DNA of 64,000 nt from a virus: positions 248,001 through 312,000 of the IMG/VR virus record IMGVR_UViG_3300035180_001778, one strand, 5' to 3'. The position numbers and the translations under genes are program-made. Positions 2,135 through 13,395 of the stretch are shown piece after piece. Position 1 is the first letter of the stretch. Each line of letters begins with the position of its first letter. Under the pieces are notes generated by a model, which worked only from the letters and a program-made list of their open reading frames with translations, made no database searches and had not been told where the DNA came from.

Positions 2135-2219
2135 TGCCGTCGACAGGAGTCGAACCTGCCCTCCCTTTCGGGAACATGCACCTCAAGCATGCGCGTCTGC
2201 CAAGATCCGCCACGACGGC
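2135..2219 (-). tRNA. tRNA-Leu(GAG), type II
   Basis: 85 nt with a normal long variable arm; anticodon stem CATGC/GCATG encloses the loop with anticodon GAG; acceptor GCCGTCG pairs fully; A73. This is the only canonical-looking leucine tRNA in the array. Confidence 0.88.
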
Positions 2220-2240
2220 CTATCGTACCCAAACCGAGAG

Positions 2241-2323
2241 TGTGTCACCCCGGGATCGAACCGGGCTACCAACGAAGGTCCTGCTTATCAGGCAGGTGTG
2301 GTCAACCAGCTCCCTCGTGACAC
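2241..2323 (-). tRNA. tRNA-Ile(GAT)-like with long variable region
   Basis: Acceptor GTGTCAC pairs perfectly, A73, T-arm intact, anticodon stem CCTGC/GCAGG with loop CTGATAA (anticodon GAT). About 14 nt separate the anticodon stem from the T-arm, far more than a normal isoleucine tRNA. Identity follows the anticodon only. Confidence 0.65.
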
Positions 2324-2501
2324 ATGTGAGGAAAGAGAGAAGGAAAAAGGATGAAACAGAAGCAGGGCGTTTCCGGGCTTCACACCAATTCCGAGGTTCC
2401 TCGGGGTTAAGCGCTTAGAAGGAGGCAGCCACGCTGGGGTTTTACCGTTTGGGGGGTTAGTTCTCTTTCCTCAGCCCGGCTTTCACCGGGCCCGGGACCC
2501 G

Positions 2502-3011
2502 CTACTCGAAGAGCGCGGGGTCCAAGTTTTCGATTTCGATCGAAGTGGAGTTCGCCATTCCGATCACGGCCTGGAGGCCGCTGTGCTTCCTTCCAGCCTG
2601 GAGGGCCCGTCCCATCGCCGCCTTGGGCTCGATGGTGGCCACCATGTACTCCGTCCCATCCCCGATGGTGCGGGAATCGGGCATGTAGGAAGTGTCCTTC
2701 TCCTTGATGGCGGACTTCCACATCTTCTGGAGACGACCCATCCCACCAACCCGCTTGATGGCCTCAGCGAGGCTCATGGGCTTCCCGTCGACCGTGACGG
2801 GGACCGCCAGGTTGTACCGCATCTGGGCGGTCTGGAGGACCGCCAGAGCGTCCTCTGCGGTCGAGTACTCCTCGGCGAGGTTGGCGGGCGAGACCGGATC
2901 CTTCTCGGAGGGGTAGGCCTTCAGGGAACCCGAGAACTGCTTCTCGGGCAGCTCCCGGCGAAGCTCCCACATCTTGATCGCATCCCGAAGCTCGAATACA
3001 GTGACCTTCAT
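2502..3011 (-). CDS. hypothetical protein, helical
   Basis: 169 residues from ATG at 3011 (in-frame ATGs at 3017 and 3023 are alternatives). It starts MKVTVFELRDAIKMWELRRE and is rich in charged helices, like small phage proteins of unknown role. The GAGG ribosome site for the 3011 start lies in the 3' arm of a perfect 14-bp hairpin (3019-3054), so translation may depend on opening it. A zinc-ribbon frame overlaps upstream in another phase. Confidence 0.7.
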   Translation of the reverse strand: MKVTVFELRDAIKMWELRRELPEKQFSGSLKAYPSEKDPVSPANLAEEYSTAEDALAVLQTAQMRYNLAVPVTVDGKPMSLAEAIKRVGGMGRLQKMWKSAIKEKDTSYMPDSRTIGDGTEYMVATIEPKAAMGRALQAGRKHSGLQAVIGMANSTSIEIENLDPALFE

Positions 3012-3018
3012 TACCATC

Positions 3019-3054
3019 CTCATCTTCTCGAAGATTTCGTCGAGAAGATGAGGC
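3019..3054 (-). repeat. perfect 14-bp inverted repeat over a start region
   Basis: The arms CCTCATCTTCTCGA and TCGAGAAGATGAGG are exact complements with an 8-nt loop. The 3' arm contains the GAGG before the ATG cluster at 3023/3017/3011. It could act as a translational switch; this is inference. Confidence 0.75.
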
Positions 3055-3216
3055 CAGCTCTCCAGTCTCCCACTCGGTCCCACAGTGATTGCAGGTAGGA
3101 ATGGGAAGATCGTCAGGAACCGGGTAGACCCCTCGACGATACCCGGCTGTGCGACCGGGCCCTGTTGTAGGGGTGACGACCCCAACGCCGCATTCGGCAC
3201 ACTTGAAACTCAACAT
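3054..3216 (-). CDS. zinc-ribbon coding segment, frame unclear at its end
   Basis: The first 55 or so residues form a zinc ribbon: CAECG near residue 6 and CNHCG near residue 42. The frame stays open beyond but becomes arginine-rich where it overlaps the next gene in a different phase, so the true end is probably near the 3019-3054 hairpin or the gene is joined to the next by a frameshift. The end given is where ribbon-like sequence stops. Confidence 0.5.
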
Positions 3217-3218
3217 GG

Positions 3219-3290
3219 TGCGGGGTAGGGGAATCGGACCCCTCTGATCTAGCTTGTCGAGCTAGTGCTCTCCCAGAGAACGAACCCCGC
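3219..3290 (-). tRNA. tRNA-Val(GAC)
   Basis: Acceptor GCGGGGT pairs, T-arm intact, anticodon stem CTAGC/GCTAG encloses anticodon GAC. Position 33 is C rather than the near-universal U. CCA is encoded at 3216-3218. Confidence 0.8.
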
Positions 3291-3294
3291 ATGG

Positions 3295-3366
3295 TGAGGC
3301 GATTGGGAGTTGAACCCAAGACAGGTTCCTTATCAGAGAACCCAGGTGACCGTACCGTCCCGCCTC
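3295..3366 (-). tRNA. tRNA-Ile(GAT)
   Basis: Anticodon GAT, short variable loop, acceptor GAGGCGG pairs, CCA encoded. The last anticodon-stem pair is C-A. A degenerate copy of the promoter motif (TTGAGG-N16-TGTA) lies at 3376-3401. Confidence 0.85.
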
Positions 3367-3412
3367 ATGTTTCTCTTACACCAACTTGGGGGTGAACCTC
3401 AAGTTTTCTTCG

Positions 3413-3491
3413 TAGTCCGAGGAGGAATTGAACCCCTACACAGCCACCTATAATGAGGCCGACGCCGACCGTACGTCTTAGGGCTCGGCCC
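3413..3491 (-). tRNA. tRNA-Ile(TAT), imperfect
   Basis: Loop ATTATAG gives anticodon TAT. The acceptor, anticodon stem and T-stem each contain one mismatch and the D-region is long, so it may be a decaying gene. Confidence 0.5.
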
Positions 3492-3500
3492 AGAAATGCG

Positions 3501-3598
3501 TCTCCGGACCCTTGTCGGTGCCGAAGTCGACTTCCCCTGTGGTCGCCTCCAGGTGTTACCTGGCTTCCGCTCAAGGGCTGCAAAGGATCTCACCGGAG
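3501..3598 (-). ncRNA. candidate structured RNA closed by CTCCGG/CCGGAG
   Basis: 98 nt lying between tRNAs but without a T-arm. Ends pair (6 bp), then an asymmetric internal loop, then CCTTTG/CAAGG, with inner hairpins CCAGGT-AAC-ACCTGG and GAAG-TCGA-CTTC. A two-helix stem with an internal loop is the general layout of Ro-binding Y RNAs, but no Y-specific sequence is visible. Confidence 0.35.
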
Positions 3599-3625
3599 TG
3601 ACCCGGGCTCAATCCAGTGCATTGG

Positions 3626-3697
3626 TACCACGAACGGGAGTCGAACCCGTACCTCTTGCATCTCAGGCAAGTGCCTCTGCCGTTGGGCTACCGTGGC
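3626..3697 (-). tRNA. tRNA-Leu(GAG), short variable loop
   Basis: Perfect anticodon stem CTTGC/GCAAG, loop CTGAGAT (anticodon GAG), variable loop 4 nt, CCA encoded at 3623-3625. It is a second leucine GAG tRNA but of type I shape. Confidence 0.85.
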
Positions 3698-3787
3698 ATT
3701 GTATCCGGACCCCATGCAACTGGGGCAACTCACAGGAGGTTGCACTCCAATGAGTCGAGAGTCCCGGATGGCCTCTCGTTTTTCTGG

Positions 3788-3862
3788 TGCTGACGAAGGG
3801 AGTCGAACCCTCACATTGTCTTCCTTCTGAGGGAAGCGCCTCGCCATTTGGGCTACGTCAGC
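3788..3862 (-). tRNA. tRNA-Leu(CAG), short variable loop
   Basis: Acceptor GCTGACG pairs fully; anticodon stem CTTCC/GGAAG with loop CTCAGAA (anticodon CAG); variable loop 7 nt; CCA encoded. Confidence 0.88.
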
Positions 3863-4023
3863 GTATTCTCGATCTCTTTCAACTTCATCAAGACCTTGTG
3901 CTTCAAGTTCTGGAGTTCGACCCTCAGAGCGTAGGCCTGAAGCATTTGAGGTCCCTGGAGCTTGTTGATACGCTTCCAGAACTTTTTGGACTTCGGTCCG
4001 CTGTATCGTCTTTTCATCTTGAG

Positions 4024-4097
4024 TGACCACGAAGGGAGTCGAACCCTCAACATTTCGCTTCTAAGGCGAACGCCTCTGCCAGTTGGGCTACGTGGCC
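4024..4097 (-). tRNA. tRNA-Leu(TAG), short variable loop
   Basis: Anticodon stem TTCGC/GCGAA, loop CTTAGAA (anticodon TAG, reads CUA), variable loop 5 nt, A73. Confidence 0.87.
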
Positions 4098-4101
4098 ATG
4101 G

Positions 4102-4175
4102 TACGGGACTAGGGGATCGGACCCTACATTTTCTGCCTTGTGAGAGCAGCGCGTTCACCAGCTCGCTCGTCCCGC
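4102..4175 (-). tRNA. tRNA-Val(CAC)
   Basis: Anticodon CAC; acceptor GCGGGAC pairs with a terminal G-U; CCA encoded at 4099-4101; last anticodon-stem pair is C-A. Confidence 0.82.
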
Positions 4176-4196
4176 GTTACTTGAATCTCGAACCCA

Positions 4197-4312
4197 GAAG
4201 AAGACCTCCGCTGCACAATAAATCCCACCCGCCTTGCTTGACGACCAGGTAGCCCCGAGAGAAGGGCATCTCTCGGCATTGCGTCCCTCAAGGGAGGCCT
4301 TCTTCTACGTTC
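4197..4312 (-). ncRNA. candidate structured RNA with long terminal stem
   Basis: Ends pair as AGAAGAAG/CTTCTTCT, one mismatch, then CCTCC/GGAGG, enclosing a hairpin CCGAGAG/CTCTCGG. No open reading frame fits. A T-arm-like GGGTTCGAGATTC follows just outside at 4185-4197. Function unknown; a Ro-bound RNA is one possibility. Confidence 0.4.
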
Positions 4313-4316
4313 GAGG

Positions 4317-4388
4317 TGACCTCGGAGGGACTCGAACCCTCACACAACCCGCTTTAAGGGGGTCCCTTTGCCTTTTTGGTACGAGGCC
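4317..4388 (-). tRNA. tRNA-Leu(TAA), short variable loop
   Basis: Loop CTTAAAG (anticodon TAA), acceptor GGCCTCG pairs, T-arm intact, variable loop 5 nt. The closing anticodon-stem pair is G-G. Confidence 0.8.
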
Positions 4389-4402
4389 GAAACACTGAAT
4401 AG

Positions 4403-4476
4403 AACCCCGGGTGGGACTTGAACCCACAACAGCCAGCTTCAAAGGATGGCGTCCCTGCCAGTAGGACCCCCGGGGC
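4403..4476 (-). tRNA. tRNA-Gln(TTG)
   Basis: Loop CTTTGAA (anticodon TTG), acceptor GCCCCGG pairs, T-arm intact; the discriminator appears to be U. Confidence 0.8.
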
Positions 4477-4532
4477 AAAGTACCTCTGCTCAGCGTGCTC
4501 ATTCTCCATGAGCATCTCCGAACGAAAGGTGG

Positions 4533-4625
4533 TCGCAGTGAAGGGAGTCGAACCCGACTGATACTGCTTGGGAAGCAGTCGCCTCACCACGTCGGCCTCA
4601 TCCGCATAGAGGCGGATTCACTGCG
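4533..4625 (-). tRNA. tRNA-Gly(CCC) with an extra hairpin inserted before the D-arm
   Basis: 93 nt. Acceptor CGCAGTG pairs perfectly, anticodon arm ACTGC-TTCCCAA-GCAGT, CCA encoded. Between the acceptor and D-arm is an 18-nt insert folding as ATCCGC/GCGGAT; removing it leaves a normal 75-nt tRNA. Confidence 0.75.
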
Positions 4626-4709
4626 CGATACCCCCGGCCGAGGATACAGTTCAGTTTTGTGTGAAAGGAATGCACCCAACCTTGCACACTAGCCCCTTGT
4701 CAGAGGCGG

Positions 4710-4777
4710 AGCGGATAGGGGGAATCGAACCCCCTGCTCATGCTTGGCAAGCACGAACCCAACCATTGGGTACCCGC
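4710..4777 (-). tRNA. tRNA-Gly(GCC), compact
   Basis: 68 nt; acceptor GCGGGTA pairs; anticodon GCC; T-stem of five G-C pairs; very small D-arm (CCC/GGG). Confidence 0.8.
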
Positions 4778-4868
4778 ATTGAGCGGTATATCAGGACACC
4801 TGTACCGCGTCGGTGCTATTGTTCCGGCACCCAGAGCAATTATGGGCTTGGTGCTTCACCGGACCTGG

Positions 4869-4940
4869 AGCGGGTAGCGGGAATCGAACCCGAATAGACA
4901 GCTTGGAAGGCTGTTGTCAGACCTCCTGACGACTACCCGC
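4869..4940 (-). tRNA. tRNA-Gly(TCC)
   Basis: Acceptor GCGGGTA perfect; anticodon stem ACAGC/GCTGT with anticodon TCC. The 3' end of the neighbouring HNH gene overlaps its 5' half by 24 bases. Confidence 0.88.
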
Positions 4941-5351
4941 AGACTTCATGCGCCGATGTGTTCGTTCGGCATGACAGTTCGAACAGACCAACTCACACTT
5001 AGCGAGTTCAGCTAAAACTCGCTCAACCGAATAACCAGCCCGGTCGATCCGAGCTATGGAAACCATCTTCAGCGTTCCTGGAAGATGGTCGTGTTGCAAG
5101 ACATAGTAAGGCCAAGGTTTTTGGCAATCTGCACACGTCTGGCCCGTCTTCAACTCTTGAATCATCTGGCGGAGCCGTTTTTGATGGTTCCGCGCCTGCG
5201 TGACGTACTTTCCCTTGTTCTTCTGGTAGTGTTCCTGATGGTACGTCTTTGCGCAGTCTTTGCAGCGATCCCTATACCCGTCACCATGACCGACCCTCTT
5301 GTGAAAGTCAACAACCGGCTTTGTTTGTTCACAGACACCGCACCGCTTCAT
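4917..5351 (-). CDS. HNH endonuclease with N-terminal zinc knuckles
   Basis: 144 residues from ATG 5351 (MKRCGVCEQTKP). Two CxxC knuckles at residues 4-7 and about 30-33, a coiled basic linker, then CADCQ, the HNH core LQHDHLPG and a final CSNCH pair. This layout is common in homing-type nucleases encoded beside phage tRNAs. Its last eight codons lie inside tRNA-Gly(TCC), so the two genes share sequence. Confidence 0.85.
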   Translation of the reverse strand: MKRCGVCEQTKPVVDFHKRVGHGDGYRDRCKDCAKTYHQEHYQKNKGKYVTQARNHQKRLRQMIQELKTGQTCADCQKPWPYYVLQHDHLPGTLKMVSIARIDRAGYSVERVLAELAKCELVCSNCHAERTHRRMKSAGSRQEV

Positions 5352-5555
5352 ATAAAAGCGGACGTATAAGGATTCCAACACAAACGCGGCTTGGAAGATT
5401 TCGAGGGCGGGCAGGTTGCAAACTGCTTCACCCTCTGAGCACCCACTTACGCCTGTCATTTGCGTTCGCCGTAAGACAGGAGACAGGAGACGTGTCGGAG
5501 CTTGCCATGGCACTCCGCACAGAGCTTTCACCCTGTGGGGATCTTGCGACCCCAG

Positions 5556-5629
5556 AGCTGGTTACGGGAGTTGAACCCGTCTCATTCCTCCATACCAGGG
5601 AGGCGTCTTCCCACGAGGACTAAACCAGC
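5556..5629 (-). tRNA. tRNA-Thr(GGT)
   Basis: Acceptor GCTGGTT perfect; anticodon stem CCTCC/GGAGG, anticodon GGT; T-arm intact. Confidence 0.88.
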
Positions 5630-5743
5630 AAATTCGAGACGACAGACGAAGCCTTCACCTTTCAGTGACTACTCCAGGGTATAGACCACCTATCCCCATT
5701 TCCACGTATGGTCAAACGTGTAGCCTGCAACCTCTATTTTTGA

Positions 5744-5846
5744 AACTCGTCTCAGGACTCGACCCCTGAATCGGGCACGTCGGTTACGGGGTTCCCCCAT
5801 CCCTTTCGGGATCCTAAGCACTGCTCTACCCTTGAGCTAGACGAAT
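5744..5846 (-). tRNA. tRNA-like gene, anticodon unresolved, with about 30 extra nt
   Basis: The acceptor pairs (ATTCGTC with GACGAGT) and the D-arm GCTC/GAGC is perfect, but the segment between D-arm and T-arm is 54 nt and contains an ATCCC-GAAA-GGGAT hairpin. The T-loop is 8 nt. It may be a decayed or intron-bearing tRNA. Confidence 0.4.
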
Positions 5847-5851
5847 CTCGG

Positions 5852-5922
5852 TGGACCAGAAGGGAATCGAACCCTCATATACCGCTTGCAAGGCGGGCGC
5901 TCTTCCGTTGAGCTACAAGCCC
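5852..5922 (-). tRNA. tRNA-Ala(TGC)
   Basis: Anticodon TGC; acceptor GGGCTTG pairs with a G3-U70 pair, the alanine identity element; T-arm intact. Confidence 0.85.
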
Positions 5923-5933
5923 ATTTTTCGTAG

Positions 5934-6004
5934 TGGAGCCGAAGGGAATCGAACCCTCGTTTCAAGAATGCCATTCTTGCGTCCTCCCGCTGGACGACAG
6001 CCCC
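5934..6004 (-). tRNA. tRNA-Ala(GGC)
   Basis: Acceptor GGGGCTG with G3-U70; anticodon stem CAAGA/TCTTG, anticodon GGC. A TTGATC-N16-TGTA promoter sits 52 bases upstream. Confidence 0.87.
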
Positions 6005-6054
6005 GTTTTCGTACCTTGTCAGAGACCGAGCCAGATTTCTCCGGCTCCCCTACC

Positions 6055-6548
6055 TTACACCAAGTCTCGGTCCTCGATCAACCGAATCGCTCTTTGTTGG
6101 AGAGAAAAGAGCAGAGCTGCTCGTTGCTGCTCCAAGGGGATGGGCCCCTTCTTCCTCGCCGAGAGGACCCCGAGGAGGCTGGAACGCTGCCATTCCAGCG
6201 TGTTCCTCAGAGCCTCCTCATCCCGCTGAAGCTCGATGCTGAGACCGTCGACCGCCGAGAGGACCTCCGCAAGGAAGCCATCCTTCTCGAAGGATACCGG
6301 GTCGATCCACTTGCGAGGACCGAACGGTATACAGCCCCGAGCTTGAAGGTACTGGTCGGAATCCCTGTCCCCTGTATTCGGAGGGCATACACATCGTACT
6401 CGACCCGGTCTTCCAGAGTGAGGGAAGACCTCTGAGGATCGAGCCAGCGAGGACCCCATGACTTCCACCCCCTTGCCAGGAGGTAGGCTCGCTCCCCCTC
6501 AGACAGGGGGCGAGGTTTCACCCGAGGAGAACTTGAGCTGTGAGCCAT
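6055..6548 (-). pseudogene. two-repeat hypothetical protein with an apparent frameshift
   Basis: Two overlapping frames join into one protein of about 160 residues. The first frame carries YLLARGW...GPRWLDP and the second YLQARGC...GPRKWIDP, clearly two copies of one repeat, which shows they belong together. The shift falls at a GGGG run near 6365; one more G restores the frame. It is either a sequencing undercall or a real mutation. Function unknown. Confidence 0.6.
6056..6081 (-). promoter_or_regulatory. TTGATC-N16-TGTA promoter toward tRNA-Ala genes
   Basis: Exact motif at the 3' end of the frameshifted gene, pointing at tRNA-Ala(GGC) and tRNA-Ala(TGC). Confidence 0.65.
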
Positions 6549-6570
6549 GTTTCATCGTACACCAAAAGAG

Positions 6571-6644
6571 CGGACCCGGGGGGACTCGAACCCCCAACTA
6601 ACCGATTAAGAGTCGGCTACTGCTACCAGTTGAGTTACAGGTCC
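6571..6644 (-). tRNA. tRNA-Lys(CTT)
   Basis: Loop CTCTTAA (anticodon CTT), acceptor GGACCTG pairs, T-stem all G-C. Confidence 0.85.
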
Positions 6645-6777
6645 AAAAATCACGACTGTCTGCCCAGACAGAACGAATGCCTCGCCGATTCGAACGGCTT
6701 GTTCCACCATTCTGGGAGGGATTTGAACCCCAGATCGGGAGCTACCCGAAGACCTACTCAGACATCCTCAGTCGTGG
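6645..6777. other. gap with tRNA fragments
   Basis: Two T-arm-like pieces (GCCG-attcgaa-CGGC near 6682-6700 and ggATTTGAAcc near 6718-6730) occur without acceptor partners. They look like remains of tRNAs. Confidence 0.3.
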
Positions 6778-6855
6778 TGTATGATTCGGGAATCGAACCC
6801 GGTGTTTTTCGCGCCTGTACGGCTGCGTCGCGTTGTCCCTACGCGCAACATCACC
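6778..6855 (-). tRNA. degenerate tRNA-like sequence
   Basis: A good T-arm and an encoded CCA (6775-6777) are present, but the acceptor pairs only with a bulge and no anticodon loop has U33. Probably a pseudo-tRNA. Confidence 0.3.
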
Positions 6856-6861
6856 CATGGG

Positions 6862-6933
6862 TGGACCCGAGGGGAATCGAACCCCTACAGCCGCAGTGCG
6901 AGTGCAGCGTGCTCCCATTATCACTACGGGCCC
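6862..6933 (-). tRNA. tRNA-Ala(CGC)
   Basis: Acceptor GGGCCCG pairs with CGGGTCC including G3-U70; loop CTCGCAC gives anticodon CGC. Confidence 0.8.
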
Positions 6934-7329
6934 AATTGTCAGTACGAGCACGGCTCTGACAGCCGGTTGACTTCTCGACGCTCGCTGTGAGTCAACAGAC
7001 CTTCTGTTGTTAGTGGCCAACACTCCAAAGAGTCCCCGTCTGTCGGCCGGGGGTACGCCGTTGCTGGTAAAGACGAGTCTTGCGACTCCGGAAGGAAGCT
7101 ACCAGCTACCCTTCTCCCTGGCGTTTCAGGCGAGGTCCTACCTCGCAGACCAAGCTACCCTCGCTTGTTGAGGTAGCTGCGACGCCAACAAGGCTGGCAC
7201 ATGTAGAACCGGCCCATGAGCGTTGCAGCGATGGTGCAGAATCGGCACCCCATAGAGCCCTCCTTTCTAAGAAAGAGGGCTCTATGGCGGCTTCACCTCA
7301 TGCATCGTCGTTGTCTCCTGTCGAGTTAG
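6934..7329 (-). other. long structured gap, no gene
   Basis: About 395 nt without a credible frame. Hairpins include GCGAGGT-AGG-ACCTCGC, GAGTC-GCAA-GACTC inside GCTGGTA/TACCAGC, GTTGACT/AGTCAAC, and a strong CCATAGAGCCCTC hairpin. It is likely to encode one or more non-coding RNAs or to be processing spacer. Confidence 0.4.
7247..7285. repeat. 13-bp perfect hairpin
   Basis: CCATAGAGCCCTC pairs exactly with GAGGGCTCTATGG around a loop that can itself pair (CTTTC/GAAAG). There is no T-tract on either strand, so it is a processing or pausing hairpin rather than a classic terminator. Confidence 0.6.
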
Positions 7330-7399
7330 CGGGCTCGGAGGGAATCGGACCCCCGCGGCCAGGTTTGGACCCCAGCGCCGCCCATTCCGTGGCTCGCCC
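7330..7399 (-). tRNA. tRNA-Trp(CCA), imperfect
   Basis: Loop GTCCAAA with anticodon CCA and discriminator G, as in tryptophan tRNAs. The anticodon stem pairs poorly and the acceptor has two mismatches. Confidence 0.5.
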
Positions 7400-7418
7400 A
7401 AAATCTTCGTCCCATTTG

Positions 7419-7490
7419 CAGGCCGGGAGGGAATCGAACCCGTCTAGTCTTGATTGACAATCAAGTGTCGCCACCAGACGACTCACGAAG
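7419..7490 (-). tRNA. tRNA-Asp(GTC) with a non-pairing acceptor
   Basis: The anticodon arm CTTGA-TTGTCAA-TCAAG is perfect and the T-arm is good, but the 5' strand that should pair with CCGGCCT does not. Either the gene is broken or the RNA needs end repair. Confidence 0.5.
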
Positions 7491-7543
7491 CATTGGGCCA
7501 TTTCTCGCAATGGCAGGCGACCCAAGATGACTTGGGTATGTAG

Positions 7544-7615
7544 CACCCCCGAGGGGAATCGAACCCCCCACACCGACGTGACAAGCCGGCCGCCTCACCA
7601 GATGCGTACGAGGGT
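7544..7615 (-). tRNA. tRNA-Asp(GTC)
   Basis: Acceptor ACCCTCG pairs, G73 as in aspartate tRNAs, anticodon GTC. The stop of the outer-membrane-type gene lies 6 bases upstream. Confidence 0.83.
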
Positions 7616-7620
7616 ATGCG

Positions 7621-8148
7621 CTACCAGGCCCAGACGGGCCCGATATTGGTAGTGAACATCGGACCCTTGTAAAGGGTGGCCGGGACCCACAACCCGTGAA
7701 CGTTTGCGGCGACCCCGAAGTCCTTGTCCTTGAGGAAGGTCAAGTAGATGTTGCCCCCAGGAGCGAAGCCCGTCTCCCGCCCGCAGCGGGGTTCATTCGA
7801 GCACAGCACCATCGTGAAGAAGTCCACGCTCGGACCAATGTCGAAGATGAAGTGCTCGGAAGGCGTCACCGTGAACATGAGAGCGTTCACGTCGAGCAAC
7901 CCCATGTTGGCCACGCTCTTGAAGGTCGTCAAGTTCGCTGAGTTCTCATAGGCAATGCCGATGGTCTCGTTGAACTTGACCCCAAGAAGAACGCTTCCCG
8001 TGAATGCGAAGCCTCCCGTCGAGTACTTGTCCCCCGCGATGAGCATCCCGAACCCCGGGTTGAGGCTCAGACGGCCCTGAGTCTCCGCGTGAAGGAGTCC
8101 AGGACTGCACAGAAGCGCGAAGGCCGCAGCCGCCAGGAGGTTCTTCAC
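7621..8148 (-). CDS. exported beta-barrel-like protein
   Basis: 175 residues. A clear signal peptide (MKNLLAAAAFALLCSPGLLHA, cut after residue 21) is followed by alternating glycine/aromatic strands such as FGMLIAGDKYSTGGFAFTGSV, ending in an aromatic residue (VWAW). This is typical of small outer-membrane barrels or OmpA/porin-like domains. Two cysteines in LCSNEPRCG could form a disulfide. It follows the lipoprotein gene after 3 bases, so both are one operon. A role in altering the host surface, such as superinfection exclusion, is inference. Confidence 0.72.
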   Translation of the reverse strand: MKNLLAAAAFALLCSPGLLHAETQGRLSLNPGFGMLIAGDKYSTGGFAFTGSVLLGVKFNETIGIAYENSANLTTFKSVANMGLLDVNALMFTVTPSEHFIFDIGPSVDFFTMVLCSNEPRCGRETGFAPGGNIYLTFLKDKDFGVAANVHGLWVPATLYKGPMFTTNIGPVWAW

Positions 8149-8151
8149 GAG

Positions 8152-8688
8152 CTACTCCTGGTCCGGCGAGTCACCCGAGCCAGGGCCGGGACCGGGATCG
8201 ACCGGCGGAGGGAGCATATCCCCACTGGTGCCTCCCTTGTCGGAGTCGTTCTGGCTCACCGGGCACTTGGGGGTCGGGGGTTCGAGCTTGAACTTCTCCT
8301 CGCAGATGACGGACTGAACGTCCTTGATCAGAGGGTTCTGGCTCTTCAGCATCTCGATGAACTTCTTCTTGGCGATCTGGAGCGCCAAGCCCCGGGCAGC
8401 CTCGAAGTTGGTCGGCGAGAAGAACCCGCTGTAGACGTCCTTCATGACGAGGTCGATGAACCCGCTCTTGACGGGAATGGACCCATCGGGGTTCTTGAGC
8501 GACATCACGTCACCTTCGCACTTGAAGGTGTAAGCGTGAGCCTCTCCATCGGTGTTCTTGACCCAGTCCTGATAGTTCTTCGAGACGACGTCGGCGTCTC
8601 CAACGCTGCATCCCTCTCCAACGACGCAGCCCTCCAGGGAGAAGGACGACGAGAGGAGGGCGATGAGGGCGATGATTTTACGGAGCAT
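8152..8688 (-). CDS. lipoprotein with proline-rich tail
   Basis: 178 residues. The N-terminus has a charged start, a hydrophobic core and the lipobox LEGC (cysteine at residue 21), so it should be lipid-anchored in the host envelope. The middle has several cysteines and a helical region; the C-terminus is acidic and proline-rich (LPPPVDPGPGPGSG). It is the upstream partner of the barrel-like gene. It could be a spanin or exclusion lipoprotein, but no family was recognised. Confidence 0.72.
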   Translation of the reverse strand: MLRKIIALIALLSSSFSLEGCVVGEGCSVGDADVVSKNYQDWVKNTDGEAHAYTFKCEGDVMSLKNPDGSIPVKSGFIDLVMKDVYSGFFSPTNFEAARGLALQIAKKKFIEMLKSQNPLIKDVQSVICEEKFKLEPPTPKCPVSQNDSDKGGTSGDMLPPPVDPGPGPGSGDSPDQE

Positions 8689-8732
8689 ACGTGCTTTTCT
8701 ATTCCATTCTGGGAGCGCGATAAACGCTCCGG

Positions 8733-8804
8733 CATCCCCGGTAGGAGTCGAACCTACCTATCAGGTTTCGTAGACCTGTGCCTCATCCGCTAGGCTATGG
8801 GGAC
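8733..8804 (-). tRNA. tRNA-Arg(ACG)
   Basis: Anticodon stem CAGGT/ACCTG, loop CTACGAA (anticodon ACG, needs A34-to-inosine editing to read CGC/CGA); T-arm perfect. Confidence 0.85.
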
Positions 8805-8836
8805 ATGTGCCCTCCGAGAAGGAGGGGTTTTCGACC

Positions 8837-9136
8837 CTACTTGGGGTCGAGGACGCTGTTCACGATGCGGAGCCGACCACTGGCCGATCCAACATTGTGA
8901 AGAAGCTCGGAGTTCTCAGGAGTTGTTGCCGGTCCCAAACGAATGGGCTGCAACGACTTCTTGATGTTCGTGAGCCGGATCTTCCAGCGCACATCGAAGT
9001 CTCGACCCTCGGCGAAGTAGCCGATGCTGAGCTTCACCGGGTCGTCATCCCCAAGAACAGGTTTCCCCGTCTCACGGACGTGAGACGGGGAAACCTGAAC
9101 CATCTGCAAGAAATCCTCATACTCATGGAGTGCCAT
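8837..9136 (-). CDS. hypothetical protein containing a 15-bp hairpin in its gene
   Basis: 99 residues, no family recognised. Codons for VSPSHVRETGKP lie in a perfect 15-bp inverted repeat (9060-9095), so base pairing constrains or interrupts the coding sequence. It sits between tRNA-Arg and tRNA-His. Stop codon is TAG. Confidence 0.6.
   Translation of the reverse strand: MALHEYEDFLQMVQVSPSHVRETGKPVLGDDDPVKLSIGYFAEGRDFDVRWKIRLTNIKKSLQPIRLGPATTPENSELLHNVGSASGRLRIVNSVLDPK
9060..9095. repeat. perfect 15-bp hairpin inside a gene
   Basis: GGTTTCCCCGTCTCA and TGAGACGGGGAAACC are exact complements with a 6-nt loop. Confidence 0.8.
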
Positions 9137-9252
9137 TCTCTAGGCACCCCACAAGAAGATTAAGACCTAGCTGGTAGGGAGGAAAGCCTCGACTCCTACC
9201 CTCTTCCTTCGCGCGTTGTAGAGGCACCGCGCGAAGCACCCAGCTCTGTCAG

Positions 9253-9324
9253 TGTGCCTGACGGGGATCGAACCCGCCTTAGTTGATTCACAGTCAACCA
9301 TCATCACCAGATGACAACAGGCAC
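9253..9324 (-). tRNA. tRNA-His(GTG)
   Basis: Acceptor GTGCCTG perfect; anticodon stem GTTGA/TCAAC with anticodon GTG. Confidence 0.88.
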
Positions 9325-9348
9325 CACGATACTCGGACCAAAAGAGAA

Positions 9349-9405
9349 GTTCGTACCCTCCTACCCCCAGTCTTGTCGAGGGAACAAGGATAGGAGAGTA
9401 CGAAC
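9349..9405 (-). ncRNA. candidate Y-like hairpin RNA
   Basis: 57 nt. The terminal helix GTTCGTAC/GTACGAAC continues after one mismatch into CTCCTA/TAGGAG. Above it is an asymmetric internal loop, C-rich on the plus strand, then a short CTTGT/ACAAG hairpin. A long end-to-end stem with an internal loop is the general Y RNA plan and the phage encodes a Ro60-type protein 4 kb away. The link is inference. Confidence 0.35.
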
Positions 9406-9432
9406 AGGACCACTGCCAGATGGTATCCTTAG

Positions 9433-9568
9433 AGGGGTATCTTGGAGTCGAACCAAGTACTTGTAAGAACCACTGTTTTGCCCCGTTTTTGACGGGGCGA
9501 GGTGTGGTACTGGGAGCTTTCGCTCCTGCGTGGAAGGCAGGTGAGGAACCGATCCTCTGTAATACCCC
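9433..9568 (-). tRNA. tRNA-Gly(TCC) with a 65-nt insert before the T-arm
   Basis: 136 nt. Acceptor GGGGTAT perfect, D-arm GAGG/CCTC, anticodon arm CCTGC-CTTCCAC-GCAGG, T-arm CTTGG/CCAAG. Between anticodon arm and T-arm is a folded insert with AGC-GAAA-GCT and CCCCGT/ACGGGG hairpins, ending TTCTTACAAG. Homologous inserts occur in neighbouring RNAs. Confidence 0.75.
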
Positions 9569-9603
9569 GAGATTTAAGGCGTCCGAGGTGCGGCCCTGGG
9601 ACT

Positions 9604-9671
9604 GTGCAAGAGCGAGTTTCGAATTCGCCCCATCGGTGCTAAACCGATTGCCCACCAAGGACAATCTTGCG
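9604..9671 (-). tRNA. tRNA-Leu(TAG), compact
   Basis: 68 nt; anticodon stem ATCGG/CCGAT perfect, anticodon TAG; T-stem pairs; acceptor pairs except 1:72. Confidence 0.7.
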
Positions 9672-9698
9672 TGTAAGAGCCGCGAATTGAACGCCTAG

Positions 9699-9829
9699 TG
9701 CCAAACCGTGGAGTCGAACCACGCTTGCTTGTATGAGCCTCAGTTTTCCTCCACATGGGAGGAGAGAAGAGACACAGGGGATTTTGGTTTCCTTATGTGG
9801 GAAGTGGCCGCCCCGCGGCCTTGTTTGGC
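9699..9829 (-). tRNA. tRNA-Met(CAT)-like with a long insert before the T-arm
   Basis: Acceptor GCCAAAC/GTTTGGC perfect, D-arm GGCC/GGCC, T-arm CGTGG/CCACG, loop CACATAA (anticodon CAT, A33). The long insert before the T-arm ends in TCATACAAG, resembling the insert of the Gly(TCC) gene. Confidence 0.55.
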
Positions 9830-9936
9830 GTTTGCCGGCCCATGCCGGTCTTGAAAGATTTCCCCGTTCCCGAGAGAAGAGACCTGGATTTCTGATCGTT
9901 TTTCGGACGATTGCCTTACCGATAGGCTACAGACCC
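9830..9936 (-). tRNA. tRNA-Phe(GAA)-like, damaged 3' part
   Basis: The 5' half is good (GGGTCTG, D-arm, anticodon stem ATCGT/ACGAT, loop CCGAAAA), followed by the same kind of insert (AAATCC...TCTCTTCTCTC as in the Met-like gene). No matching acceptor 3' strand or normal T-loop follows. Confidence 0.4.
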
Positions 9937-9946
9937 AGTTGTTGGC

Positions 9947-10006
9947 GGGTTTGGCAAGAGTTGAACTTGCTTGCGTGTAAGGTCTCGTTCGAGAGGGAAC
10001 GAGTAG
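9947..10006 (-). other. orphan T-arm with insert-type leader
   Basis: A perfect T-arm GCAAG-TTCAACT-CTTGC preceded by a CTCGTTC/GAACGAG hairpin and CCTTACACG, the 3' half of an insert-bearing tRNA without a 5' half. Confidence 0.35.
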
Positions 10007-10141
10007 TGGGCCACCCTGGAGTCGAACCAGTGACTTGTAAGAACAACTATTTGTCCAGTTCACACGGGACGAGGTGTTGTACTGAGGAGCTTGCGCTCCC
10101 GCTCCGATTGCGGGTGGGGGACCGACCCCCTGTGATGGCAC
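10007..10141 (-). tRNA. insert-bearing tRNA-like RNA, loop AATCGGA
   Basis: 135 nt, strongly similar in its insert to the RNA at 9433-9568 (shared TTCTTACAAGT and GGAGC-hairpin segments). Acceptor 6 of 7 pairs, D-arm GGGGG/CCCCC, anticodon stem CCCGC/GCGGG. The loop lacks U33; nominal anticodon TCG. Confidence 0.5.
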
Positions 10142-10183
10142 AGATGACCGTTTGAGACGGTCTCGTTTCGCTTCTATCTAGTA

Positions 10184-10217
10184 CACCATCTCTCCGAGTT
10201 ACGAGATGGTTTTTTCA
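10184..10217. terminator. hairpin with T-run downstream of the tRNA array
   Basis: ACCATCTC/GAGATGGT followed by six T on the plus strand. The minus strand reads the same hairpin preceded by A-run, so it would stop plus-strand transcription or act on both strands weakly. Confidence 0.45.
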
Positions 10218-10226
10218 GATTTCTCT

Positions 10227-10805
10227 CTAGAGGTGCAATGTAGTGCCGTACGGCGCGACGTTGTACCCGATCTTGCGCCCCTTGAGGAAGAACTCCTGGA
10301 CGGCACGAGCGAGATAGGCTGAGGTGAGGGCGATAAACGGCAAGTGCTCGCCGTTTTCGCAGGTTGCTGCCCCAGCTCCGGGCTCATCGTCGATGGTGAA
10401 GTCGTGATCCCACCGAACGAGTCCGAAGGTGCCGTCTGCCGCCAGTCCCCCGTGGATGCAGGGAGTGTTGGTCCGACGAGCGAAAGCTTGCACAAGCCGG
10501 CGTGCTGCCCCGTTGTCGAGGCAGTCGACGATGAGGTCGGCTCCCGAGAGGAGCTGCTTCTCATTGTCGGACGTGAGCTTGTGCGGGATGGTCTCGATCT
10601 TCGTCCCGAAGAAGAAGTTCATCGCCTGCTTCAGCGACTCGACCTTGGCCTTGCCCACGGAAGGCTTCCCGTGGAACTGGCTGAGTACGTTCTTCTGCTC
10701 GACGCGGTCGAAGTCGATCACCTTGAGGTTCACCCCGGTGCTCCGGAGGAACTGTGCAACGTGGGAGCCGAGCGCGCCGACCCCCACAATGGTCACGGTC
10801 TTCAT
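10227..10805 (-). CDS. ThiF/E1-like adenylating enzyme
   Basis: 192 residues. Rossmann start with GVGALGS (residues 8-14), acidic ATP-contacting segment IDFDRVEQKNVLSQF (30-44), DCLDN (94-98) and a candidate catalytic cysteine C149 in ATCENGEHLP, followed by a helix. This is the layout of E1 enzymes that adenylate the C-terminus of a ubiquitin-like protein and pass it to a cysteine. The CxxC zinc pairs of MoeB/ThiF are absent. Its ATG overlaps the stop of the HNH gene. With the JAB and Ubl genes upstream it completes an E1/Ubl/JAB set; no E2 was recognised. Confidence 0.85.
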   Translation of the reverse strand: MKTVTIVGVGALGSHVAQFLRSTGVNLKVIDFDRVEQKNVLSQFHGKPSVGKAKVESLKQAMNFFFGTKIETIPHKLTSDNEKQLLSGADLIVDCLDNGAARRLVQAFARRTNTPCIHGGLAADGTFGLVRWDHDFTIDDEPGAGAATCENGEHLPFIALTSAYLARAVQEFFLKGRKIGYNVAPYGTTLHL

Positions 10806-11185
10806 AGTGTTGCTCCGAAGCCGATCCAGTCCCCAAACAACCCCTGCTCGCGGACTGTGCGGACGGTTTCTGCGAACTTGAGCCACGCCTCCCAGGGCAT
10901 GTCCCTCCGCATATAGTTACACCTGATGCAGGCCGGAACGACGTTCGCCTTCGTGTGACCAAGAGCGTTATCCACGCGATCCAGGGTCATCTTGAGCTTG
11001 GTCTCGCCGCAGTACTGGCACCCCAAAGCGAGGAGGTCTTGGACGAAAGAGAGATCGAGATCCGAGATGAACCCGTGCCTCTTGTCCCTCTTCTTGGAGT
11101 CCTCCAAGACCCAACGGGAGCGTGTTGTGGGGTCTCTCCGAAGAGCTTTCCGGCGATCTTCCCGGACGCGCCAGTTATCAGGCAT
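10802..11185 (-). CDS. HNH endonuclease inside the Ubl operon
   Basis: 127 residues. Core: CQYCG knuckle, LDRVDNALGHTKANVVPACIRCNYMR. The stop overlaps the E1 start (ATGA), so it is embedded in the same transcript. Probably a mobile nuclease that inserted between the zinc-finger gene and E1. Overlap suggests translational coupling of E1 to this gene. Confidence 0.88.
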   Translation of the reverse strand: MPDNWRVREDRRKALRRDPTTRSRWVLEDSKKRDKRHGFISDLDLSFVQDLLALGCQYCGETKLKMTLDRVDNALGHTKANVVPACIRCNYMRRDMPWEAWLKFAETVRTVREQGLFGDWIGFGATL

Positions 11186-11224
11186 GATCCGTGGAGGTTA
11201 CCACAGATCCGCCCCTGCTGACAA

Positions 11225-11515
11225 TCACTTCGTCAGCGGTCGCTGAGACCAGATAACAACAACGGCAACCGTCTTCTGGAAGGGCTTGCCATCAGCATCG
11301 AGATCAGATTCCTGCCCCACATGCACGAGCTTTCCACTGTGCGTGGTCAGATAGTGGTTGACGTGATCCTGCCACTGATTTGGCCCGGTGAAGCGATAGT
11401 GGTTGACGTGATCCTGCCACTGATTTGGCCCGGTGAAGCTGAAGTCCCACCCACATGTACAGCTTCCGCCGAGCACGTCGCTGTCGATACGAACGACTTC
11501 CTGAATCTTACCCAT
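11225..11515 (-). CDS. zinc-finger-like small protein with duplicated segment
   Basis: 96 residues. CTCGWDF followed by HVNHY gives a C2H2-like metal site; a 45-bp tandem duplication (11351-11440) repeats the 15-residue block RFTGPNQWQDHVNHY exactly in frame, doubling the histidine half. It lies 7 bases after the Ubl gene, so it belongs to that operon. Role unknown; a substrate or adaptor for the E1/JAB system is only a guess. Confidence 0.7.
   Translation of the reverse strand: MGKIQEVVRIDSDVLGGSCTCGWDFSFTGPNQWQDHVNHYRFTGPNQWQDHVNHYLTTHSGKLVHVGQESDLDADGKPFQKTVAVVVIWSQRPLTK
11351..11440. repeat. 45-bp tandem duplication
   Basis: Two copies differing at the last base; in frame within the zinc-finger-like gene. 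Confidence 0.9.
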
Positions 11516-11522
11516 GGCTGCC

Positions 11523-11789
11523 TCAGTCGACGTCTCCGAAGGGGGTCTTCGGCCGGACGCTGATCCGGTTGTGGAGGTCCCCCGTGGCCGGGAAGCGGTC
11601 GATGACGAAGTCGGTGAAGTCGGCGTTCCCCATCGCGGGGATCCCGGGGACGCCGCCGTTGCGGATGGCCTCGGTCACCCAGGCGCGAATCTGGGTGTCG
11701 GTCGAGTCGTACAGGACCGTATCCGGGAGGTCCCCCTGGTTGCCGGAGTAGGTGATGTTGACTCGGGCCTCTTGTGCTGCGATGACCAT
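11523..11789 (-). CDS. ubiquitin-like protein candidate
   Basis: 88 residues from ATG 11789, preceded by a good AAAGGAG site. Pattern: strand ARVNITYSG, strand TVLYDS, helix TDTQIRAWVTEAIR, later strands FTDFVIDRF and RISVRPKTPFG, the beta-beta-alpha-beta-beta order of the ubiquitin fold. It ends PFG-DVD, so cutting after the glycine by the adjacent JAB peptidase would expose a C-terminal glycine for E1. No double glycine. Assignment rests on fold pattern and on lying between JAB and E1 genes. Confidence 0.6.
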   Translation of the reverse strand: MVIAAQEARVNITYSGNQGDLPDTVLYDSTDTQIRAWVTEAIRNGGVPGIPAMGNADFTDFVIDRFPATGDLHNRISVRPKTPFGDVD

Positions 11790-11836
11790 GGCTGGTCTCC
11801 TTTCATTCGATGTTGGGGGTCTAGTACACCGGACCC

Positions 11837-12244
11837 TCAAGACGGGGTTGGAAACCCGGAGCGAATCCTCAGCTCACGGACCCAAGGGATCAGAGGAACC
11901 TCTGAGAGCAGGTCCACACAGGCCAAGCTCACAGTGTATCTGGGGGCTTGGTGCTCCTTTTCCCGGAGACACAAGACCAGCGAATCCCCCGAAGAGATCC
12001 ACCATTCGAGATGCCGACCCAATCCACGTTCAATCGCGTCGAACGTGGTGATATCCTCACGGCTCGGACCCAGCTTCCCGTATCCGGGGTGGGTGTGAGC
12101 TATGCCCCGGAGCCGAGCGCGGTTCTCCCAGATCACATCCCAGAGGGGACGGCTATCCGGGATAGCTCCGCCAGAACGGTCGTTCGGCATGTGCCAGTAG
12201 AAGGGTTGACCGTCGAGGTCAAGGAGAACGGCTGCTTCCTTCAT
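11837..12244 (-). CDS. JAB/JAMM metallo-isopeptidase
   Basis: 135 residues. JAMM signature H50-T-H52-P with S61-R-E-D64 (HxHP-x7-SxxD), the zinc site of deubiquitinase-like peptidases; E3 or E40 may be the catalytic acid. The family removes or trims ubiquitin-like proteins. Start at ATG 12244 gives a compact domain; the longer frame overlaps the small gene upstream. Ubl follows 47 bases downstream. Confidence 0.85.
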   Translation of the reverse strand: MKEAAVLLDLDGQPFYWHMPNDRSGGAIPDSRPLWDVIWENRARLRGIAHTHPGYGKLGPSREDITTFDAIERGLGRHLEWWISSGDSLVLCLREKEHQAPRYTVSLACVDLLSEVPLIPWVRELRIRSGFPTPS

Positions 12245-12246
12245 GG

Positions 12247-12435
12247 TCAACCCTTGCAGGACTTCTTGTGCTTGTACCAGACGAAGGCCGCGTCGCCGAT
12301 CCCGGCTTGCGCTGCCCACTGCTTGAGCGACAGGCCTTGAGGGAGACCTTCAGCTCGCCAGCGACGCTTCAGATCGTTGCGCCACTTGCGACACACACCG
12401 TTCTCGTATCCCTCTTGGCTAGTCGTCGTCATCAT
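12247..12435 (-). CDS. small basic protein in the Ubl operon
   Basis: 62 residues from ATG 12435, overlapping the end of the coiled-coil gene by 17 bases and ending 2 bases before the JAB start, which argues that it is translated. Basic helix CRKWRNDLKRRWRAEGL then LSLKQWAAQAGIGDAAFVWYKHKKSC, resembling a small helix-turn-helix. Function unknown. Confidence 0.6.
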   Translation of the reverse strand: MMTTTSQEGYENGVCRKWRNDLKRRWRAEGLPQGLSLKQWAAQAGIGDAAFVWYKHKKSCKG

Positions 12436-13390
12436 CGTCGTCCCTATCGTCCCCAACGTGTCGGAAGACCACGAGCTTCCGCTCACGGTCCGCTTGTCCG
12501 ATTACACCAGGCAGCGATTCGAGGGTGAAGTATGCATCGCCTTTCTCCCCCGTTGCATGGTCGTTGAGGCAAATCCCGGAATCGATGATCCGAAGCGTAC
12601 GGGCATCGCACGTACACTCGAACTGCCGGTGCATGAACCGGAAGGTGACGACCATTTCTCCGCGAGACGTGGATGTTCTGTGGTCGAGGTAGGTCGCACC
12701 ACCTACCGCCAGGGAGGCCCGAGCAGCCTCGCCGAAGTCCACCACAGCCATTGCCCGCCGACCGGCTGCATCTCCGAGCTGAGTACGAATCTGCTCTCGG
12801 CGTTCCTCAAGCTGACGTCGTTCTTCTTCCTCGCGGAGCTGCTTGGCGATCTCTTCGCGGCGCTTTTGGGCTTCGAGTGTCCGCCACATTTCCATGCGGA
12901 AGGCAGCATCGAGAGCCGGAGCCACACCCTTCACCGCATCGAGTGAAGGGGTGCGGTTGTAGTAAGCCTGGAGAACGTCTCCCTCGGGACCGAGGGGCAT
13001 CTCTTGTCCCCCGTAGATGAGGGGCCCATCTTCGTAGAAGGCTCCGACCTGGACACGGGCGAACCGATCCAGGCCGGGCTCCACAAGATGTACGGGCTTT
13101 GCGTAGTCGCAGATCCTCGCCGGGTCCGGGTCGACACGGACATTGTCCGGAACGATCCAGTCTCCGACGAGATACCCGCGAACCTGTTGTCGAAGGAGCC
13201 CAGCGGTGGCTTCCGCCGGGCCTTTGAGCTTGGCCTTCCGTCCAGTCAAACCGAACGTGTACCACCCATGCTCCCTCGGAAGAGGGCCATCGAGAGTCCA
13301 CGATCGTTCAGCTTGACGAAGGACCCTACCCCCGATCCAAGGAAGGACGATCGTCTCGTCCTTCCCCTGGAGAAGATCCTTCCAGCCCAT
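12419..13390 (-). CDS. coiled-coil protein with Cys-rich C-terminal domain and poly-Asp end
   Basis: 323 residues. An N-terminal domain (MGWKDLLQGKDETIVLPWIG...) is followed near residues 165-210 by a charged coiled coil rich in EE/RR/QL, then a domain FRFMHRQFECTCDARTLRIID with cysteines, and a tail of seven aspartates. ATG is 6 bases after the TROVE stop and its end overlaps the next gene, so it sits in the middle of the TROVE-JAB-Ubl operon. The cysteine domain could be an E2-like or target-binding part, but no motif proves this. Confidence 0.72.
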   Translation of the reverse strand: MGWKDLLQGKDETIVLPWIGGRVLRQAERSWTLDGPLPREHGWYTFGLTGRKAKLKGPAEATAGLLRQQVRGYLVGDWIVPDNVRVDPDPARICDYAKPVHLVEPGLDRFARVQVGAFYEDGPLIYGGQEMPLGPEGDVLQAYYNRTPSLDAVKGVAPALDAAFRMEMWRTLEAQKRREEIAKQLREEEERRQLEERREQIRTQLGDAAGRRAMAVVDFGEAARASLAVGGATYLDHRTSTSRGEMVVTFRFMHRQFECTCDARTLRIIDSGICLNDHATGEKGDAYFTLESLPGVIGQADRERKLVVFRHVGDDRDDDDDDD

Positions 13391-13395
13391 TCAGC

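What the first reader, a model, noticed from the sequence alone, without database searches (positions are those of the whole stretch)
9433..10141. A family of tRNAs carrying a homologous 65-nt domain between anticodon arm and T-arm
Seen: RNAs at 9433-9568 (Gly TCC), 9699-9829 (Met CAT-like), 9830-9936 (Phe GAA-like) and 10007-10141 share a long folded insert ending in a TTCTTACAAG-like segment. The ends and T-arms still match, so each could fold as a tRNA with a huge variable arm. An orphan T-arm with the same leader lies at 9947-10006. Inference: a spreading RNA element, or tRNAs given an extra binding domain.
Basis: seen in the sequence. Interest (0 to 1): 0.78.

Follow-up and report, generated by a model that had tools for sequence, protein, structure and literature searches.

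The report
Phage tRNAs with a Ro60-linked RNA handle
A group of giant bacterial viruses carries tRNA genes that contain, are split by, or are wrapped in the same small folded RNA module, nearly always with a gene for a protein shaped like Ro60, the ring that in other organisms binds tRNA-mimicking RNAs; this suggests an unknown viral RNA-protein machine and may show how such tRNA mimics arose from tRNAs.

Summary
The shared insert is real. It is an RNA family absent from Rfam. Module M is an ~8-bp stem, a 5/5 internal loop with a nearly invariant CUC, a second stem, then YACAMGC before the T-arm. In 36 sequences 87.6% of paired cells pair (62.7% shuffled, at most 52% when slid); 16 of 17 pairs show compensatory changes.

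The parsing needs correction. The "Phe" RNA and the "orphan T-arm" are two halves of one circularly permuted tRNA flanked by M halves. A missed RNA at 9578-9695 is a complete tRNA flanked by M halves. All are on the minus strand. Relatives show the same three layouts: 41 cis inserts, about 14 permuted genes, 31 flanked tRNAs (0.1 expected).

M travels with a Ro60-like protein (window 13399-15321). Of 27 contigs found from M alone, 24 encode it, including all 15 of at least 150 kb; 50 of 62 loci found from the protein carry M. Sequence profiles do not call it Ro60, but Foldseek's top five PDB matches are Ro60/TROVE.

Best reading: M is the handle by which a phage Ro60-like ring holds tRNA-bodied, Y-RNA-like RNAs. 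Binding, expression and function are inferred. A tRNA intron is the main rival.

The parts
10007..10141 (-). Type I RNA: tRNA body (anticodon UCG, A33) with cis module M in the V region (M core about 10033-10085)
   Evidence: (58.2 bits, E 1.4e-14)
9865..10001 (-). Type II RNA: circularly permuted tRNA (anticodon GAA, C33). M 3' half 9974-10001, T-arm 9954-9970, acceptor 3' strand 9947-9953, GCCA 9943-9946, spacer 9937-9942, acceptor 5' strand 9930-9936, then D- and anticodon arms, M 5' half 9865-9885
   Evidence: weak Rfam YrlA hit on this stretch
9699..9829 (-). Type I RNA: tRNA body (anticodon CAU, A33) with cis module M (core about 9727-9778)
   Evidence: 60.2 bits, E 3.7e-15
9578..9695 (-). 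Type III RNA: complete tRNA about 9605-9670 (anticodon UAG) flanked by M 3' half (9669-9695) and M 5' half (9578-9596)
   Evidence: score 22.5; coordinates; class significance
9433..9568 (-). Type I RNA: tRNA-Gly(UCC) body with cis module M (core about 9459-9513)
   Evidence: 67.0 bits, E 4e-17
10230..10805 (-). ThiF/E1-like protein, 192 aa, directly upstream of the RNA array
   Evidence: Pfam ThiF 1.5e-27; conserved in the block
11840..12319 (-). p160: JAB/MPN-type metallopeptidase-like protein (HSHP...S..D motif)
   Evidence: Prok-JAB matches 14 of 14 homologues, best 3.6e-6; the window member itself only E 0.0076
12422..13390 (-). p323: conserved protein of unknown function, usually next to the Ro60-like gene
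13399..15321 (-). Ro60-like protein: mostly helical N-terminal part plus C-terminal VWA domain with DxSxS
   Evidence: present in 20 of 21 records

Best explanation
Module M most likely works as the protein-binding handle of a phage ribonucleoprotein. The phage makes RNAs whose bodies are tRNAs or tRNA mimics and attaches M to them in cis (V-loop), by circular permutation, or around the ends. M is bound by the Ro60-like ring protein encoded in the same gene block, much as Ro60/Rsr holds Y RNAs whose other end mimics a tRNA. The likely use is tRNA protection or mimicry during infection: decoying or sequestering host or defence tRNA nucleases, or handing damaged tRNAs to an RNA ligase (RtcB, or the Rnl2-like ligase of this phage). 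Shown by computation: the structure of M, its three layouts, conservation of acceptor and elbow elements, co-occurrence and mostly shared strand with the Ro60-like gene, and the Ro60-like predicted fold. Inferred: expression, binding, that M is retained in the mature RNA, and the anti-nuclease or repair role.
For: M is a covarying structure. Association was tested in both directions: 24 of 27 contigs found by RNA pattern alone carry the protein, all 15 of at least 150 kb; 50 of 62 loci found by the protein carry M within about 10 kb, and 156 of 158 M hits lie on the gene's strand. In MAG contigs L114, L117 and L119 the RNAs sit about 60-350 nt upstream of the gene. Fold: full-length model, Foldseek top five all Ro60/TROVE, best E 3e-8, including Ro60 of Thermus phage phiLo; N-terminal part alone, the six best VIA matches are Ro60/Rsr, Z 6.9-9.0, best unrelated 6.2. 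The permuted RNAs draw sub-threshold hits of the Y-RNA family YrlA. One permuted member lacks an anticodon arm altogether (L013:11191), as YrlA does. Position 33 is U in only 23 of 39 type I RNAs, against 317 of 342 ordinary tRNAs, while D-loop GG is kept in 41 of 41. RtcB lies within 25 kb of the gene in 6 of 11 RtcB-bearing records, 2.0 expected, P 0.005 ignoring shared ancestry. Rsr-Y RNA-RtcB operons and a decoy role for the YrlA tRNA-like domain are described or proposed in PMC7790460.
Against: TROVE (PF05731) does not match the protein in any record, while the control rings. The fold matches have low TM-scores (0.2-0.35) and rmsd of 13-19 A, so ring geometry is not shown; Foldseek on the N-terminal part alone gave nothing below E 0.001. 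Encoded CCA (13 of 41 type I; similar to 122 of 323 ordinary tRNAs), and NCCA also after the acceptor in many permuted genes including this window's, suggests real, chargeable tRNA ends, which a pure mimic does not need. One copy sits at the canonical intron position of an otherwise perfect tRNA-Tyr. The carriers are related phages, so co-occurrence partly reflects ancestry. No expression data.
Confidence: 0.5

Rival explanations
1. M is a new kind of tRNA intron. It is cut out by a phage or host endonuclease or by itself, and exons are joined by RtcB or an Rnl2-like ligase. Permuted genes would give circular pre-tRNAs that are opened at the acceptor, as in red algae.
For: Various insertion sites, including anticodon loop 37/38 of a perfect tRNA-Tyr in L117; permuted genes with short acceptor spacers and often an encoded NCCA; 7/7 acceptor pairs in all 41 selected type I RNAs, where pairing was a selection criterion; RtcB in 12 of 21 records and an RNA-ligase match in G000.
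Against: Fixed cut points relative to M do not fit all copies. Several type I RNAs have the T-stem directly after YACAMGC, so GC must stay; the anticodon-loop copy needs the join 2-3 nt further downstream. Flanked tRNAs would only become circles. U33 is often lost and some bodies lack an anticodon arm. No Rfam intron matches, and about 52 nt is too short for a group I or II core.
Confidence: 0.28
2. M is kept as a giant variable arm, and type II gives two-piece tRNAs held together by M, as in two-piece tmRNA. The RNAs decode in translation and M only makes them resistant to nucleases or host control; the Ro60-like gene is an unrelated neighbour.
For: CCA ends, acceptor and D/T-loop elements like ordinary tRNAs; many different anticodons; permuted tmRNA genes are also cut at the acceptor spacer (own knowledge).
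Against: Loss of U33 and of anticodon arms in some members. The window already has ordinary tRNAs for Gly-UCC, Met-CAU, Phe-GAA and Leu-UAG. The tight link with the Ro60-like gene is unexplained.
Confidence: 0.14
3. M is a small selfish or mobile RNA-level element, or a recombination by-product, that lands in tRNA loops; the RNAs have no function of their own.
For: Several insertion sites in tRNAs; HNH endonuclease genes nearby; multiple copies per genome.
Against: Strong covariation across phages whose proteins are about 45-65% identical, conserved place beside one gene block, and permuted copies whose separated halves still pair.
Confidence: 0.06

Closest known systems
Bacterial Y RNA YrlA (Rfam RF02553) with Ro60/Rsr
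   Same: T-arm, acceptor-like and D-arm in permuted order, closed by a stem made from the RNA's two ends; encoded near a Ro-type protein and often RtcB (PMC7790460; RNA anatomy partly from own knowledge)
   Different: Here most bodies keep anticodon arm, full acceptor stem and often CCA; cis and flanked layouts exist; M is not found by RF02553 (19-20.5 bits against 69 required) and the protein is missed by the TROVE profile
Circularly permuted tRNA genes of red/green algae and archaea (PMC3978253, PMC3218864)
   Same: 3' half precedes 5' half, short spacer between the acceptor strands
   Different: Found in phages; junction in the V region inside a conserved module, not seen as a BHB motif; halves stay paired through M
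Two-piece (permuted) tmRNA
   Same: Permuted order and pairing that can hold two pieces
   Different: No tag reading frame seen; many isoacceptor bodies; this phage has a separate one-piece tmRNA
Ro60 of jumbo phages (TROVE proteins; phiLo Ro60, PDB 9l5y)
   Same: Phage-encoded Ro-type protein, proposed RNA-repair platform with a tRNA-like partner (PMC7824862)
   Different: Not detectable by the TROVE profile; extra N-terminal beta-rich region; lies in a block with E1-like and JAB-like proteins
tRNA introns (archaeal/eukaryal BHB; bacterial group I)
   Same: One copy at position 37/38; others in V- and D-loops
   Different: Different conserved structure, about 52 nt core, no Rfam intron match, no constant splice position

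Membership tests
Y RNA (YrlA, RF02553) | Match to the Rfam covariance model at its gathering score | tested here: not met
   19.0 and 20.5 bits against 69, only model positions about 30-81
Y RNA (YrlA, RF02553) | tRNA-like module in the order T-arm - acceptor - D-arm, closed by an end stem | tested here: met
   Type II RNAs in about 11 loci; one lacks the anticodon arm like YrlA
Y RNA (YrlA, RF02553) | Conserved Ro-binding stem sequence; binding to Ro60/Rsr | not tested
   No authentic YrlA sequence was in hand for comparison, and binding needs an experiment
Ro60 / TROVE protein | Match to PF05731 | tested here: not met
   0 of 21 and 0 of 5 records, control positive
Ro60 / TROVE protein | HEAT-like ring plus C-terminal VWA fold | tested here: inconclusive
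   Foldseek top five Ro60/TROVE over 550-570 columns; N-terminal part alone, VIA top six Ro60/Rsr; but TM 0.2-0.35, rmsd 13-19 A, and Foldseek alone on the N-terminal part found nothing significant
Ro60 / TROVE protein | VWA with MIDAS DxSxS | tested here: met
   D449, S451, S453 invariant in 21 homologues; VWA Pfam hits
Circularly permuted tRNA genes | 3' half encoded upstream of 5' half with matching acceptor strands | tested here: met
Circularly permuted tRNA genes | BHB splice motif at the junction | tested here: inconclusive
   The consensus shows a 5/5 internal loop between two longer stems, not a 3-4-3 BHB; no dedicated BHB search was run
tRNA (RF00005) | Cloverleaf match at gathering score | tested here: not met
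   No match in the window RNAs except 27.5 bits (cut-off 29) on the permuted one; one relative reaches 43.2
Group I/II intron | Catalytic core detectable by Rfam models | tested here: not met
   No intron family near threshold; one group-II-D1D4-2 hit in L020 at 19.1 bits against 36

The most novel reading that the evidence does not exclude
Huge phages carry circularly permuted and interrupted tRNA genes whose processing depends on a previously undescribed RNA module and a cryptic Ro60-like ring with an E1/JAB pair. It would be either a new tRNA-splicing system or a tRNA-to-Y-RNA evolutionary intermediate that still makes chargeable tRNAs.
Probability: 0.35. Interest if true: 0.93.

Novelty: new variant of a known kind. 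Interest (0 to 1): 0.85.

Why it matters
Bacterial Y RNAs mimic tRNAs, and how that mimicry arose is unclear to me from the papers I could read. Here one phage group holds possible steps side by side: tRNAs with a handle in cis, permuted tRNAs that keep anticodon arm and CCA, and a permuted RNA without an anticodon arm like YrlA. I found no report of permuted tRNA genes in phages. It also adds a very diverged Ro60-like protein with E1-like and JAB-like neighbours to the phage side of the tRNA-nuclease and repair conflict, and gives a defined RNA-protein pair to test. The tRNA finder used here misses the cis and permuted genes.

Tried and rejected
Four separate cis tRNAs plus an orphan T-arm: rejected after half pairing showed a permuted gene. 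Known Rfam RNA: none at threshold. Group I or II intron: no match, too short. TROVE by sequence: 0 records; only faint hints in two divergent relatives, vWA_Ro60 E 0.1 and phiLo TROVE E 0.45. PF09511 ligase search uninformative because no control rang. p323: no Pfam or PDB match worth using. Anticodon-loop insertion as a common layout: only one clear case plus one D-loop case. Direct comparison with real YrlA: Bxz1 not in the collections, and a phylum search needs a genome handle. Foldseek of the N-terminal part alone: no significant hit. M hits in Rctr197k by covariance model: none at E below 1e-4, though a permuted tRNA can be read there by eye. Promoter scan of the array: none found.

Full report
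WHAT IS THERE. The window is part of a 350,469-base virus record. A near-identical record exists in IMG/VR (L003/L004). All the RNAs lie on the minus strand between 9433 and 10141, downstream of a ThiF-like gene. Three RNAs (9433-9568, 9699-9829, 10007-10141) read as acceptor - D-arm - anticodon arm - insert - T-arm - acceptor. A further RNA at 9578-9695 is a complete tRNA with the two insert halves on its flanks.

THE MODULE. Relatives were reached through the neighbouring ThiF protein: 25 loci in phage contigs up to 618 kb. A script found 41 cis copies in 19 loci. Consensus: CC(A/G)G then stem 1 (often with a pyrimidine-pyrimidine mismatch at the third pair), N-M-CUC, stem 2 with a short loop, about five nucleotides, stem 1 again, then Y-ACA-(A/C)-GC, 0-8 nt and the T-arm. 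RNAalifold gives 17 pairs, 16 with compensatory changes. Fixed-structure counts: 87.6% of cells pair against 62.7% after shuffling; 160 double-change cells against 45; slid structures reach at most 52%. The covariance model R1 matches 20 of 21 whole records, 2-7 copies each at E below 1e-4, best 4e-21. In the 24 loci searched, stretches that are plainly ordinary tRNAs scored no more than about 21 bits.

THREE LAYOUTS. Type I is cis in the V region. Type II is permuted: 16 candidates printed, of which two (L012:12279 and L020:11833) look like spurious pairings of neighbouring type I copies, leaving about 14. Their spacers are 4-25 nt and several begin with NCCA, including the window's GCCA. Type III is a complete tRNA flanked by halves: 31 of 1054 ARAGORN tRNAs, 0.1 expected after shuffling the downstream sequence. 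Rarer: one M in the anticodon loop at 37/38 of a perfect tRNA-Tyr (L117) and one apparently in a D-loop (L109, read by eye).

tRNA CHARACTER. All 41 type I RNAs have 7 of 7 acceptor pairs and a GG in the D-loop region. Acceptor pairing was a selection criterion, so this shows consistency, not an independent test; the window's third cis RNA (6 of 7) fell below that cut. CCA is encoded in 13 of 41, like 122 of 323 ordinary tRNAs. Position 33 is U in 23 of 39 type I RNAs and A in 8, against U in 317 and A in none of 342 ordinary tRNAs. ARAGORN may prefer pyrimidine at 33, and some of my loop assignments are doubtful, so the contrast is partly biased. One permuted member has no anticodon arm (L013:11191), and a few cis copies have a shortened body.

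THE PROTEIN. The 650-aa ORF at 13396-15348 has a C-terminal VWA domain and is 47-60% identical in the relatives' loci. A structure model from 21 homologues (mean pLDDT 78, pTM 0.49) gives Ro60/TROVE as the five best Foldseek matches (E 3e-8 to 4e-6); 1yvp Ro is the only long match in the VIA list (Z 13.4, 379 residues, rmsd 13.9), tied with many VWA-only rows. The N-terminal 436 residues folded alone (pLDDT 81) again give Ro60/Rsr as the six best VIA matches, Z 9.0 to 6.9, with the best unrelated at 6.2. Absolute agreement is poor, Foldseek alone finds nothing significant for this part, and the TROVE profile never matches. I therefore call it Ro60-like, not Ro60.

THE ASSOCIATION. Of 27 contigs found only by two DNA patterns for M, 24 encode the protein, two of them as divergent versions at E 1e-22 and 4e-37; all 15 contigs of at least 150 kb do. 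The three without it are 7, 96 and 110 kb. Of 62 loci found through the protein, 50 contain M, and 156 of 158 hits are on the gene's strand. The gene order Ro60-like - p323 - JAB-like p160 - ThiF - M array recurs in most loci. Nine MAG contigs that encode the protein come mostly from Myxococcota or older 'Deltaproteobacteria' bins, so the host may be there. RtcB occurs in 12 of 21 records and lies within 25 kb of the gene in 6 of 11 (2.0 expected, P 0.005 if records were independent). G000 has no RtcB match but an RNA-ligase match.

HOW IT PROBABLY WORKS. In bacteria Ro60 (Rsr) binds Y RNAs, which in Deinococcus tether it to PNPase; [quoted passage not shown] Jumbo phages with TROVE proteins and a tRNA-like partner were proposed as RNA-repair platforms (PMC7824862). 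The permuted RNAs here raise sub-threshold YrlA hits. I infer that M is the protein-facing stem and the tRNA body the mimicking or cargo part. What is not shown: transcription, binding, retention of M, and any effect on nucleases or repair.

WHY NOT SIMPLY AN INTRON. If M were cut at fixed points, the remaining loops should be tRNA-like in every copy. In several type I RNAs the T-stem follows the motif directly, so the motif's GC must stay in the V-loop; the anticodon-loop copy has four further nucleotides where only two fit. Flanked tRNAs would only yield circles. The intron reading stays open because the CCA, acceptor and permuted-gene evidence fits it well.

NOVELTY AND LIMITS. No match in Rfam 15 and no paper found on permuted tRNA genes in phages. 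The paper library lacks bioRxiv and most subscription journals. From memory only, I think preprint-level work on naturally permuted, self-splicing tRNA elements in bacteria may exist; I could not verify it, and M is too short for a group I core. Counts of carriers include relatives, so they are not independent events.

Noticed in passing
window 11840-12319 and 10230-10805 (-): JAB/MPN-like peptidase and E1/ThiF-like protein in one conserved block with the Ro60-like gene: a possible ubiquitin-like conjugation pair in huge phages.
   Followed up: partly
window 12422-13390 (-): p323, conserved beside the Ro60-like gene in nearly all loci, without any family match; one invariant cysteine.
   Followed up: partly
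window 1708-2060 (-) and 81-17701 (-): One-piece tmRNA (tag ANDNALVPMQMAA) and an array of more than 30 ordinary tRNAs on the same strand.
   Followed up: no
window 54161-54233 (+): A lone tRNA called SeC (anticodon UCA) on the opposite strand, far from the array; could be a suppressor rather than selenocysteine tRNA.
   Followed up: no
window 968-1780 and 10805-11185 (-): HNH / endonuclease VII-like genes next to the tRNA array, possibly homing endonucleases.
   Followed up: no
window 9039-9100 and 9348-9405: Two long near-perfect inverted repeats between the RNA array and the next genes; possible terminators or structured RNAs.
   Followed up: no
L009 about 4380-4560 (-), KX853510 (Virus Rctr197k): Unannotated permuted tRNA beside ThiF in a public GenBank phage; its 3' joint carries an extra hairpin.
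   Followed up: partly
L111-L119: Contigs with the Ro60-like gene binned in Myxococcota/Deltaproteobacteria MAGs, pointing to a likely host.
   Followed up: partly
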